Below, one piece after another: positions 43,847 through 46,348 of a stretch of 64,000 nucleotides of DNA. Below the pieces are notes generated by a model. It saw only the letters and a program-made list of their open reading frames with translations, ran no database searches and was not told where the DNA came from. Within the stretch, counting starts at the first letter, position 1. The number at the start of each line of letters is the position of its first letter. The translations under genes were made by a program, and so were the position numbers. Source of the DNA: Microbacterium sp. SA39 (GTDB lineage: Bacteria; Actinomycetota; Actinomycetes; Actinomycetales; Microbacteriaceae); assembly GCF_000967865.1 (NCBI RefSeq), contig NZ_JXRU01000023.1, forward strand, positions 1 to 64,000, in the 5' to 3' direction.

Positions 43847-43940
43847 AATCCGGGCTACGCAAAGTTGACATAGTGGCCCGAATCCGGGTTAGGATGAGTT
43901 CATTGCTCCCCGCCGTCTCCGGATTGGCGGGGATTTTTTT
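43847..43940 (+). promoter_or_regulatory. Promoter, direct repeat and leader hairpin with T-tract ahead of the NYN gene
   Basis: TTGACA (43865-43870), 19 bases, TAGGAT (43890-43895). The octamer AATCCGGG occurs at 43847-43854 and 43881-43888, on both sides of the -35. Downstream, TCCCCGCC (43907-43914) pairs with GGCGGGGA (43926-43933) and seven T follow, ending 16 bases before the ATG of the NYN gene. This could be an attenuator, or the terminator of the upstream operon. The segment 43671-43846 holds no recognisable gene. Confidence 0.6.
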
Positions 43941-43956
43941 ACCTCGGGGGGCCGCG

Positions 43957-44634
43957 ATGCTGCGTACATCAGTCGTCATCGACTATCAAAACGTTCATCT
44001 GACTGCGCACGACGTGTTCAATCCTGGCGGCAACCGGCATGACTCCCTGATACATCCGATGCAGTTCGCGAAGAGCGCGATCATTGAACGCAACGCTCGT
44101 CAGCGTGCTGGGTTTCCGCATGCGGTATGCGAACGCGTCACCGTGTTCCGCGGGTTGCACCACGTCGACCACGACTGGGAGCAGAACCGGCGCTGCAGGG
44201 ATCAAGCAACCGAATGGACGAACGACGGCGTTCACGTCGAGCTTCGCGACCTGAAGTATCGTTTCCAGCGCGGCGCTGACGGACGGCCTGTGCTTGATAT
44301 TAACGGCAAGAAGGTACCCGAGGGGCGTCCGGTGGAGAAGGGCATCGACGTGCTCTGCGCTCTCGCCTGCGTCCGCGAAGCAGCGCGACCCGACGTCGAC
44401 TTGGTCATACTCGCATCGCGAGACACTGACCTAGTTCCTGCGCTCGATGAGGTCTACGACTTCCGAGGCGCCGACCCCGCTCGGTACGCTCGAATCGAGA
44501 CCGTAGCGTGGTTCGACAGCGGTGCTGCGCGCAACTTTGGTAGCTTGCGACCCACAGCCCCTCGAAAGATCTGGAACACCAATCTTGGTCGCGCCGTGTT
44601 CGATGCTTCCTTGGACAGGAAGGACTACCGGTAG
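43957..44634 (+). CDS. NYN-domain (LabA/PIN-like) putative ribonuclease
   Basis: 225 residues from the ATG at 43957, preceded by a G-rich CGGGGGG element. The NYN fold is clear: N-terminal VVIDYQNVHLTAHDVF (D and N of the active site), and DLVILASRDTDLVPALDEVYD with the acidic pair of the PIN-like centre. Central GIDVLCALACV matches the family's K-G-x-D-V helix (VEKGIDVL). NYN proteins are metal-dependent RNases or RNA-binding regulators. Codon use includes many A/T-ending codons unlike its neighbours, indicating transfer. It is the first gene of an accessory island, and a 20-bp perfect palindrome spans its stop codon. Confidence 0.85.
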   Translation: MLRTSVVIDYQNVHLTAHDVFNPGGNRHDSLIHPMQFAKSAIIERNARQRAGFPHAVCERVTVFRGLHHVDHDWEQNRRCRDQATEWTNDGVHVELRDLKYRFQRGADGRPVLDINGKKVPEGRPVEKGIDVLCALACVREAARPDVDLVILASRDTDLVPALDEVYDFRGADPARYARIETVAWFDSGAARNFGSLRPTAPRKIWNTNLGRAVFDASLDRKDYR

Positions 44635-44639
44635 TCCTT
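44620..44639. repeat. 20-bp perfect palindrome over the NYN stop codon
   Basis: AAGGACTACCGGTAGTCCTT is its own reverse complement; the TAG stop (44632-44634) lies in its right half. It may be a protein-binding or recombination site, or a weak terminator. The next 150 bases, to the small membrane gene, show no gene. Confidence 0.6.
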
Positions 44640-44784
44640 GACCGTGTAGTCGACGCGTCGATCGCTCTTACACGGCCGTGCCGACGAGCGACGCGAGGGA
44701 TCGGTGCTTTGATGCGCTCGTATGTCGAGGTCTCTAGCTATCGTCAGACCCAACGGCGAGGGGCGCCACGAAGAGGAGACAGTG

Positions 44785-44961
44785 ATGGAGTGGTTCCTGG
44801 ATGGACTTGGAACGATGTTGATCGGACTGGTGCTCGGCGGCGCCGGGGGAAGCGTCGTCACCTGGCGCGTTATGTCCCGGAAGACCTCGCAGCACCAACG
44901 AGCGGGGAGCAATTCGACTCAGGTGCAGGCCGGGCGTGACTTCAAAGGCGACATCAGGTGA
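44785..44961 (+). CDS. Tiny membrane protein of the accessory island
   Basis: 58 residues from the ATG at 44785, chosen for GAGGAG about 6 bases upstream; an ATG at 44722 gives 79 residues. One glycine-rich TM segment (about residues 8-27, TMLIGLVLGGAGGSVVTW) is followed by a basic stretch and the C-terminal GSNSTQVQAGRDFKGDI. This N-S-x-x-V-Q-A-G-R-D pattern resembles short beta-strand motifs seen in many mobile-element proteins, and a similar motif opens the next protein. Its stop overlaps the next start (GTGA). Likely inserts in the inner membrane with the motif in the cytoplasm. Function unknown. Confidence 0.7.
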   Translation: MEWFLDGLGTMLIGLVLGGAGGSVVTWRVMSRKTSQHQRAGSNSTQVQAGRDFKGDIR

Positions 44962-46022
44962 CTTGGGGGCGGAAGCAGCGACAAGAAGCGGGTGACGGCG
45001 CGCAACAGTGGCAAGTCGCTGGCAACGTCATCGTCGGGATCAACGAGGAGCGCGCGCGAGAGATCGCGGAGGTTACGGCTAAGCAGGTCATCGCTGAGCA
45101 TGCAGGTGTAGCGCTCGCGATCGTTCAGGAGCGGATCGATGAGTTCGATCGCCGCGTGATCTCAAGTCTCGAGGCTCGCGGCCACCTGGATGCGTTTGGG
45201 GATCCGGCATTCCAACGGGCCTATCGGAAAGCTCAGACCGGTGCGGCCTCATCTGACCGCGCGACCGACTACGACACGCTTGCAGCCCTTCTTTCCGACA
45301 GAGCTGAGTCCGTTGGCGACCGAGTGGCGGTCGGGGCGATCGAAAAGGCTATCGAGGTCGTCGATCTCGTCGATGACCTCGCACTCCGCGGCATGAGCCT
45401 TATGTACGCGATAAGGGAATGGCACCCCTTCTCGTATGACATCGATGAAGGGCTTGACGTAATCGATCGGATGATGGGAGTTCTCATCACGGGACCCCTG
45501 CCGCATGGCAGCGAGTGGGTTATGCATCTGGAGTCCCTCGGCTTGGTGCGCGCGACGACAGTAATGGAACTCAAGAAAATGCCACTCCTCCTGTCTGAGA
45601 AGTTGGTGGGGTACGTCGCACCGGGGGTTGAGAGCCGCGCTATGCCGGAGCAGGTCCACCCAGCGGTCCCTGGGGTGCGGTGGGAGCCCTTGACCGTCGA
45701 GCACGCCCTAAAGCCTGGCTATCGGCGCGTGCGCGCCTCGAACGAAGCCATGTTGAGCAGGGTCTTTGAACAGAACGGATTCCCTCAGCATTGGCGCGAG
45801 ATCATCATGGCTGAAGCGAGAAGCTTGTTTGGACTTGGCACCATTGATCCTTCGCTCAGGGAACCTCTGCTCGCTGCCGCTCAGGAGCGGACGCACCTTG
45901 CACAGGCGATGATCTTCTGGGATTCAATCCCGCTCGGCGCTCACTTGACTCTGACGGGAGAGACTCTCGCTAAGGCGAATGCCTACCGGCTGGATACAGA
46001 GGGATACATCACACGTGAGTAG
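44958..46022 (+). CDS. LPO_1073/Vpar_1526-like protein of unknown function
   Basis: 354 residues from a GTG overlapping the membrane gene's stop. Near the N-terminus is GDGAQQWQVAGNVIVGI, followed by a helix with EERAREIAEVTAKQVIAEHA. This layout resembles, from memory, the LPO_1073/Vpar_1526 family. The middle is helical (DTLAALLSDRAESVGDRVAVGAIEKAIEVVDLVDDLALRG) and the rest is mixed. No nuclease, ATPase or membrane signature is visible. Translational coupling with the tiny membrane protein and the shared Q-A-G-type motif suggest they act together. Base use differs from flanking genes, so horizontal transfer is likely. Confidence 0.65.
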   Translation: MTWGRKQRQEAGDGAQQWQVAGNVIVGINEERAREIAEVTAKQVIAEHAGVALAIVQERIDEFDRRVISSLEARGHLDAFGDPAFQRAYRKAQTGAASSDRATDYDTLAALLSDRAESVGDRVAVGAIEKAIEVVDLVDDLALRGMSLMYAIREWHPFSYDIDEGLDVIDRMMGVLITGPLPHGSEWVMHLESLGLVRATTVMELKKMPLLLSEKLVGYVAPGVESRAMPEQVHPAVPGVRWEPLTVEHALKPGYRRVRASNEAMLSRVFEQNGFPQHWREIIMAEARSLFGLGTIDPSLREPLLAAAQERTHLAQAMIFWDSIPLGAHLTLTGETLAKANAYRLDTEGYITRE

Positions 46023-46348
46023 CCGTCACGACTGTGGTTCGTTCTTGAGCATTACCCGGAGACGAAGGTCTTCGGCTTCATCTCGGGCTACGGACTCGTT
46101 CTCGCGGACGACAGCCCGTACGCGAACCGCGTGTTCGATCCCAGCACGGTGGACGACTTCTACGTCGCTCCGGATGCCGTCCGAGACGAGATCCTGCGTC
46201 GGCACCGCATGATCGTGGACGGCGACGCATTACCCATCTTCGAGATCGGCACCAACGATTCCCCGCAGGCCTGGGCGTCGGCTTGCTCTCCAACATCGCC
46301 GTGAGGTCAGGCGAGATCGTGAACACATTGGTCGAGAGCACGAACTAA
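46023..46348 (+). pseudogene. 5'-truncated, frameshifted host-like gene fragment
   Basis: Directly after the island's last stop, one frame encodes FVLEHYPETKVFGFISGYG through IFEIGTNDSPQA without a start codon. Around 46270 the coding sense moves to another frame, continuing LGVGLLSNIAVRSGEIVNTL to a TAA at 46346-46348. The GC-rich codon use is host-like, unlike the island. It looks like the 3' part of a resident gene whose 5' end was lost when the island arrived. The family is not recognised. Confidence 0.65.

What the first reader, a model, noticed from the sequence alone, without database searches (positions are those of the whole stretch)
43847..46022. Accessory island: NYN nuclease, tiny membrane protein and LPO_1073-like protein
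Three plus-strand genes with non-host codon use sit between ordinary metabolic genes. The NYN protein is a probable RNase. The 58-residue membrane protein ends in NSTQVQAGRDFKGDI and its coupled partner begins with GDGAQQWQVAGNVIVGI, so both carry a similar short beta motif, as if they co-assemble. Membrane component plus sensor plus nuclease is the general layout of several anti-phage systems, but this combination is not one I recognise.
Basis: partly seen in the sequence, partly recalled or inferred. Interest (0 to 1): 0.7.

Follow-up and report, generated by a model that had tools for sequence, protein, structure and literature searches.

The report
Two-gene membrane-sensor pair sharing a motif
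A tiny membrane protein and its neighbour protein carry matching copies of a short sticky-looking sequence, and the same gene pair turns up in distant bacteria and in phages, several times beside known virus-defence genes, which suggests a small infection-triggered membrane switch wired like fungal and animal cell-death switches.

Summary
The three genes and their foreign composition are real, but only two form a unit. The NYN gene does not travel with the others: 0 of 16 related loci, and in 99 genomes of the genus NYN and LPO_1073 carriers overlap only in the window's own genome.

The 58-aa membrane protein and the LPO_1073 protein are a conserved gene pair. I found 16 distinct copies in Actinomycetota, Clostridia, Enterobacterales and a phage scaffold. 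The C-terminus of the membrane protein and the N-terminus of LPO_1073 share a motif, QxQ(R/K)AG(D/N)NSxQxQ(V/I/A)G. Five mutually dissimilar membrane parts carry it. In Pantoea both copies are N/T-rich. A motif-only search returned only adjacent pairs at E<1e-4.

Pairs lie inside a type I restriction locus (L011), in the gpA-gpQ defence hotspot of P2-like prophages beside Hp1-Hp2-Hp3 (L048), and near recombinases.

Best reading: an abortive-infection module in which an LPO_1073 sensor engages a membrane effector through a homotypic, probably cross-beta, motif. The layout is that of Bell/NLR amyloid signalosomes, without an NLR. Amyloid formation, defence and trigger are untested.

The parts
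44785..44961 (+). 58-aa single-pass membrane protein, glycine-zipper-like TM helix (about residues 7-25), predicted cytoplasmic C-terminal tail; putative effector
   Evidence: homologues immediately upstream of LPO_1073 in 11 other loci of this TM type
44890..44943 (+). C-terminal shared motif QHQRAGSNSTQVQAGRDF (residues 36-53)
44958..44961 (+). GTGA overlap of the stop of the membrane gene and the start of the LPO_1073 gene (translational coupling inferred)
   Evidence: 4-base overlap in 10 of 16 pairs and some overlap in 15 of 16, with start codons chosen by me
44958..46022 (+). LPO_1073/Vpar_1526 family protein, 354 aa, mostly helical; putative sensor
   Evidence: NF045477 62.1 bits, cut-off 45; AlphaFold2 mean pLDDT 86 with residues 1-27 below 50
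44976..45035 (+). N-terminal shared motif QRQEAGDGAQQWQVAGNVIV (residues 7-26), low confidence in the model
43957..44634 (+). NYN/PIN-like RNase gene on the same low-GC island; neighbour, not part of the module
   Evidence: Pfam NYN E=9e-4 but below gathering score; no co-occurrence seen

Best explanation
Genes 44785-44961 and 44958-46022 are a mobile two-gene conflict (anti-phage) module. SHOWN by sequence: a conserved, usually overlapping gene pair; a membrane protein with a C-terminal motif; an LPO_1073 protein with the same motif at its N-terminus, followed in the model by a long helix and a mostly helical domain; replacement of the membrane part while the motif link is kept; location of several copies in restriction loci and a prophage defence hotspot. 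INFERRED: the LPO_1073 domain senses infection and oligomerises; its disordered N-terminal motifs come together and form a cross-beta (beta-arch) nucleus with QxQ..G(D/N)N..SxQxQ strands; this templates the cytoplasmic C-terminal motifs of the membrane protein; the clustered glycine-zipper helices permeabilise or depolarise the membrane, so that the infected cell stops or dies before phage release. Trigger and LPO_1073 ligand are unknown.
For: 16 distinct pairs. Motif-only profile in 246 + 204 genomes: every match at E<1e-4 falls in adjacent-gene pairs, in 5 genomes; 4 of these gave rows to the profile, 1 (G653) is an independent find with a different two-TM protein. Outside the motif, the membrane parts of L014, L048, L050 and L084 show no significant similarity to the window type or to each other (10 comparisons, 62-465 of 500 shuffles as good), while L007, L010, L011 and L013 match the window type (0 of 500). 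Cognate motifs match better than re-paired ones over 16 pairs (48.0 vs 40.0, 1 of 20000 permutations; phylogeny not removed), and Pantoea's N/T-rich motif is mirrored in both partners. LPO_1073 proteins lacking the motif have their own N-terminal hydrophobic helix in 3 of 4 cases, two of them near-identical loci. Defence context: inside hsdM-hsdS-...-hsdR (L011) and one gene before hsdR (L013); next to Hp1-Hp2-Hp3 in the P2-like gpA-gpQ interval, which PMC9122126 describes as a defence hotspot (passages read). Motif region below pLDDT 50 in the monomer model.
Against: No amyloid, toxicity or phage assay was seen or run. No significant match of the motif profile to published motif peptides (shuffles as good, of 2000: BASS3 212, archaeal 108, fungal sigma 463, published non-aggregating peptide 1701), and no RHIM fibril among PDB matches. 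Partner-specific matching is weak or absent in narrower tests: 327 of 20000 for 12 pairs of the window's TM type; on 13 ungapped positions 711 of 20000 for 14 pairs, 8704 for 11, 15063 for 6. The glycine-zipper pattern used is loose and has no control. PADLOC has no model for either protein. Defence proximity has no background control; for 6 of 16 pairs I noted no known defence gene or recombinase, most of their neighbours not being scanned. One LPO_1073 locus (L044) has neither partner nor own TM.
Confidence: 0.5

Rival explanations
1. Constitutive tether: the motif is a stoichiometric beta-zipper that only anchors LPO_1073 at the membrane; LPO_1073 itself is the working part and no amyloid switch is involved.
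For: Three LPO_1073 proteins without the motif carry their own N-terminal hydrophobic helix (L041, L042, L043), so membrane location may be the constant feature; no partner-specific divergence in the narrower tests.
Against: A low-complexity Q/N/G motif on both sides is an odd choice for a heteromeric anchor (judgement); LPO_1073 shows no recognisable enzyme fold (inconclusive).
Confidence: 0.25
2. Toxin-antitoxin pair: the small membrane protein is a toxin held inactive by LPO_1073 binding through the shared motif.
For: Tiny membrane toxin-like protein, coupled genes, mobile context.
Against: The partner is a 285-376 aa protein that follows the toxin gene; single chains with TM helix and LPO_1073 domain (L041, L042) do not suit an antitoxin.
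Confidence: 0.12
3. Prophage or restriction-locus accessory function other than cell death, e.g. superinfection exclusion at the membrane.
For: P2-like prophages carry it at the place where P2 has old and tin.
Against: Also found outside prophages, e.g. inside a type I restriction operon.
Confidence: 0.1
4. Three-gene NYN-TM-LPO_1073 defence system.
For: Shared low-GC island and orientation in the window.
Against: NYN absent from 16 of 16 related loci of 6-20 kb; in 99 genomes of the genus NYN and LPO_1073 carriers overlap only in the own genome; 150 bp separate NYN from the pair.
Confidence: 0.03

Closest known systems
Bacterial Bell/NLR amyloid signalosomes (BASS1-10; Dyrka et al. 2020, known here only through passages of PMC7889193 and PMC8086366)
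   Same: Adjacent or overlapping genes; short motif at the C-terminus of a membrane-targeting effector and at the N-terminus of the receptor
   Different: Receptor is an LPO_1073 protein, not an NLR; effector is a 55-110 aa one- or two-TM protein; motif not detectably homologous to the published peptides tested; present also in E. coli prophages
Fungal HET-S/HELLP-NLR and mammalian RHIM necroptosis signalling (passages of PMC7885112)
   Same: Short motif linking receptor and membrane executioner; (V/T/M)-Q-(V/I/A)-G core resembles the RHIM tetrad (recalled)
   Different: Strict (I/V)-Q-(I/V)-G on only 3 of 16 TM-side motifs; no kinase, HeLo domain or NLR
LPO_1073/Vpar_1526 family (NF045477)
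   Same: The larger protein is a scoring member
   Different: No described function was found in the searches made; the motif-bearing N-terminus lies before the part matched by the family model (which starts at residue 27)
P2-like gpA-gpQ hotspot systems (PMC9122126, passages), incl. Hp1-Hp2-Hp3
   Same: The E. coli pair sits in this interval beside Hp1-Hp2-Hp3
   Different: Different genes; in L052 the pair occurs there with other neighbours, so it is a separate unit. Whether the pair is among the arrangements listed in that paper's Table S5 could not be read

Membership tests
LPO_1073/Vpar_1526 family (NF045477) | Score above curated cut-off (45 bits) | tested here: met
   62.1 bits, E=6e-17
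Bacterial amyloid signalosome (Bell/NLR, BASS) | Adjacent genes sharing a short motif at effector C-terminus and receptor N-terminus | tested here: met
   16 pairs; paired hits only at E<1e-4 in motif search
Bacterial amyloid signalosome (Bell/NLR, BASS) | Receptor is an NLR (NB-ARC/NACHT ATPase) | tested here: not met
   No Pfam match at E<=1 for the 354-aa protein; NCBIfam gives LPO_1073 only
Bacterial amyloid signalosome (Bell/NLR, BASS) | Effector carries a Bell domain | tested here: inconclusive
   58-aa protein has no Pfam match, but whether Pfam holds Bell was not checked
Bacterial amyloid signalosome (Bell/NLR, BASS) | Motif belongs to BASS1-10 | tested here: inconclusive
   One BASS3 peptide scored: 212 of 2000 shuffles as good; BASS profiles not available
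Bacterial amyloid signalosome (Bell/NLR, BASS) | Motif forms amyloid and cross-seeds | not testable with these tools
   Needs peptides
RHIM | (I/V)-Q-(I/V/L/C)-G core (recalled) | tested here: inconclusive
   3 of 16 TM-side motifs strictly; window has VQAG; no RHIM structure among PDB matches
Known anti-phage system (PADLOC 2023) | Match to a PADLOC model | tested here: not met
   None for the 58-aa and LPO_1073 proteins nor for P0007/P0008
NYN nuclease (43957-44634) | Pfam gathering score | tested here: inconclusive
   20.2 bits against 24.2; IDYQN, KGID and RDTD stretches visible (their catalytic role recalled)

The most novel reading that the evidence does not exclude
A prion-like signalling system independent of NLRs: LPO_1073 proteins are a new receptor class that transmits a phage-infection signal by templating a cross-beta fold onto interchangeable small membrane effectors, used by ordinary unicellular bacteria and by prophages against rival phages.
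Probability: 0.4. Interest if true: 0.85.

Novelty: new variant of a known kind. Interest (0 to 1): 0.72.

Why it matters
The review PMC7889193 (passages read) lists as open whether bacteria have signalling amyloids in pathways not dependent on NLRs. This pair is a concrete candidate, small enough for synthetic peptides, and exists in a P2-like prophage of E. coli, so it can be tested in K-12 with standard phages. It would also give the LPO_1073/Vpar_1526 family, for which I found no described function, a first functional hypothesis, and would show swapping of membrane effectors behind a constant motif.

Tried and rejected
Rejected: (1) NYN as third component. (2) The 'ssl2009 thylakoid' NCBIfam match of the 58-aa protein (E=0.008, 16.8 bits against cut-off 58) and the PADLOC HEC-09 match of NYN (E=0.0018): too weak. 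(3) Two virus coat-protein matches of the motif profile in PDB (E 1.1 and 2.2): chance. (4) A known fold for LPO_1073: Foldseek had no match at E<=0.001; VIA-align best Z 7.5, many of the top rows designed helical proteins, which is uninformative. (5) Weak small-TM matches: 8 of the 12 genomes (E 4.5e-4 to 0.009, frames of 102-951 aa) were not pursued; G1129 is a 275-aa membrane protein without the motif by eye. (6) Weak motif matches in G573 and G636:C6 (E about 0.05) lie in frames without a paired motif by inspection. (7) Homology of the motif to published amyloid motif peptides: not significant. (8) A first pairing permutation (16 of 20000) is discarded because two rows were out of register; corrected. 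(9) Scans for relatives that found none.

Literature: searches. No paper holds LPO_1073; one holds Vpar_1526 (a proteome paper, listing seen only). None of the listed titles and abstract starts showed an amyloid-linked bacterial anti-phage pair without an NLR. Passages or sections were read of PMC12261475, PMC8086366, PMC7889193, PMC7885112, PMC9122126 and PMC12881547; supplementary files could not be read. Preprints and most subscription papers are not in the library. Dyrka et al. 2020 itself was not read.

Full report
OBSERVATION. The window holds, on the + strand, a NYN-like gene (43957-44634), a 58-aa membrane protein (44785-44961) and a 354-aa LPO_1073/Vpar_1526 protein (44958-46022). The stretch has G+C 0.607; none of 229 equally long stretches outside it is as low (minimum 0.654). 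In a congener, G005, the aligned ends of the DUF5107 gene and the AraC gene lie 40 bp apart, with epimerase, NYN and pair not at that place, so the site is variable; whether the epimerase came with the island is open.

WHICH GENES BELONG TOGETHER. Relatives of the LPO_1073 protein were collected from species genomes (9 loci), the genus (3 of 99 genomes including the own one; the other two have the same contigs as L008 and L009 by length), the phylum (2 of 396 including the own), genomes of L013's phylum (4 of 299 including L013's own), phages and plasmids (none with the L003 protein in plasmids). All 9 loci have a small membrane gene directly upstream. A search with the small membrane proteins in 296 genomes gave three convincing intact loci (own, G567, G624), all followed by LPO_1073, and one decayed pair (G636). 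With L015 (phage scaffold), L048 (E. coli), L050 (Pantoea, small gene unannotated) and L084 (G653) there are 16 distinct pairs: window, L006-L015, L028, L029, L048, L050, L084; in L015 the LPO_1073 frame is short. Genes overlap in 15 of 16, by exactly 4 bases in 10 (start codons chosen by me). NYN was found in none of 16 loci of 6-20 kb: 14 of the 15 other pairs (L050 was not included), the relic L030 and a second copy of the E. coli pair, L052; two known NYN loci served as positive controls and were found. Among the same 99 genomes of the genus NYN occurs in 4 (one a fragment) and LPO_1073 in 3; only the own genome has both.

LPO_1073 WITHOUT THE PAIR. Four such loci were seen. L041 has an N-terminal hydrophobic helix (LIALSAVIGGAAG) fused to the LPO_1073 domain and directly follows a type I restriction R gene, with a Shedu SduA gene nearby. 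L042 and L043 (near-identical to each other) carry the domain at the end of a 725-aa protein with an N-terminal TM helix. L044 has neither helix nor visible partner. Thus a TM helix is in three of these fused to LPO_1073, and in the 16 pairs supplied by a neighbour that carries the motif.

THE MOTIF. Alignment A5 of 28 motif copies (14 pairs) gives QxQ(R/K)AG(D/N)(N/G)SxQxQ(V/I/A)G, with alternating Gln on two presumed strands around a Gly-Asp/Asn-Asn turn (the strand reading is inference). TM-side against LPO-side: at most 4 of 1000 shuffles score as well in 14 of 16 pairs; exceptions are L006 (14) and the window itself (162). In 14 pairs the same small proteins score 13-22 against LPO residues 60-109, compared with 27-61 for the motif region. 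A search with the 20-position motif alone in 246 genomes of the window's class and 204 genomes of L013's phylum found, at E<1e-4, matches in 5 genomes, each exactly two, in adjacent genes. Four of these genomes had contributed to the profile; the fifth, G653, is new and has a different, 110-aa two-TM protein before its LPO_1073 gene. The membrane parts fall into a WFFDGLGT single-TM type (12 pairs, each with a loose glycine-zipper pattern, no control) and the longer forms of L014, L048, L050 and L084. Outside the motif, these four show no significant similarity to the window type or to one another (62-465 of 500 shuffles as good in 10 comparisons), whereas L007, L010, L011 and L013 match the window type with 0 of 500. 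In Pantoea the motif is N/T-rich in both partners (GISGGKNSTN / GISSGDNSNT). Over 16 pairs cognate scores exceed re-paired ones (1 of 20000 permutations); within the 12 WFFDGLGT pairs the effect is weak (327 of 20000), and on 13 ungapped positions it is 711 of 20000 for 14 pairs, 8704 for 11 and 15063 for 6. Relatedness was not removed, so co-divergence is suggested, not proven.

CONTEXT. L011: hsdM, hsdS, two unknown genes, membrane gene, LPO_1073, hsdR, all on one strand; L013: pair, one unknown gene, hsdR; L007: type II restriction-modification genes about 1.7 kb away; L012: PDC-M01 candidate system within 6 kb. L048: E. coli P2-like prophage, pair between the replication endonuclease and the portal gene, beside Hp1-Hp2-Hp3; PMC9122126 (passages read) defines the gpA-gpQ interval as a defence hotspot and reports an active three-gene system without clear domains, which I take to be this one (inference). 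The pair covers at least 80% of the query in 6 of 5426 E. coli genomes, each time beside a portal gene; a seventh matches over 9% only. In L052 the pair has other neighbours. Five IMG/VR contigs carry it, with the small gene upstream in 5 of 5. Recombinases or integrases lie in L007, L008, L014, L015, L028 and L084. In total 10 of 16 pairs have a known defence gene, recombinase, integrase or prophage in the flank; for the other six (window, L006, L009, L010, L029, L050) none was noted, most of their neighbours not being scanned, and no background rate was measured.

STRUCTURE. AlphaFold2 of the LPO_1073 protein with 10 sequences: mean pLDDT 86, residues 1-27 (the motif) below 50, a helix 30-73, then a mostly helical domain. 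No solved structure is a convincing match. No enzyme active site is suggested, which fits a sensor or scaffold better than an enzyme, but this is weak.

MECHANISM. The layout (membrane effector with C-terminal motif; partner with N-terminal motif; overlapping genes; swappable effectors) is that of Bell/NLR and fungal HeLo/NLR amyloid signalosomes as described in PMC7889193 and PMC7885112 (passages read). By analogy: trigger, LPO_1073 clustering, cross-beta nucleation by the N-terminal motifs, templating of the membrane-protein tails, clustering of glycine-zipper helices, membrane failure, abortive infection. Every step, including that the two motifs touch each other, is inference from conservation. 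The main rival is a permanent tether that holds LPO_1073 at the membrane. It works like a Bell/NLR signalosome in layout but is not filed as one, because the NLR criterion is not met and the motif is not detectably a BASS motif (one BASS3 peptide tested).

NOVELTY. In ten searches of an open-access library none of the listed papers showed this pair or a function for LPO_1073/Vpar_1526; preprints, most subscription papers and supplementary tables were not covered. I rate it a new variant of a known kind.

Noticed in passing
window 46026-46304: Fragment of an unidentified gene (frame reading ...EHYPETKVFGFISGYGLVLADDSPYANRVFDPSTVDDFYVAPDAV...) right after the LPO_1073 gene, apparently a remnant of further cargo.
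   Followed up: no
window 43913-43934: Terminator-like hairpin with a T run just upstream of the NYN gene; about the number expected by chance in the region (3 found, mean 1.6, sd 1.3 in shuffles).
   Followed up: no
L030:5840-6100: Decayed copy of the pair in G636: membrane gene frameshifted, stop inside the LPO_1073 start region.
   Followed up: partly
L015:1215-1496: Phage-scaffold membrane protein carries two copies of a motif-like stretch, reminiscent of repeated motifs in fungal HET-s.
   Followed up: no
PHROG families 27656, 19542, 13487: phrog_27656 and phrog_19542 match the E. coli P2-like pair over full length; phrog_13487 (120 aa, unknown) weakly matches both the window membrane protein and the motif part of the E. 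coli one, so it may be another membrane partner.
   Followed up: no
L041:1182-7681: LPO_1073 fused to its own N-terminal hydrophobic helix sits directly after a type I restriction R gene and near a Shedu SduA gene.
   Followed up: partly
L055, L056: NYN-like relatives in two congeners (G091, G029); no membrane-LPO_1073 pair was seen in their surroundings, so the NYN gene looks like a separate accessory gene.
   Followed up: partly
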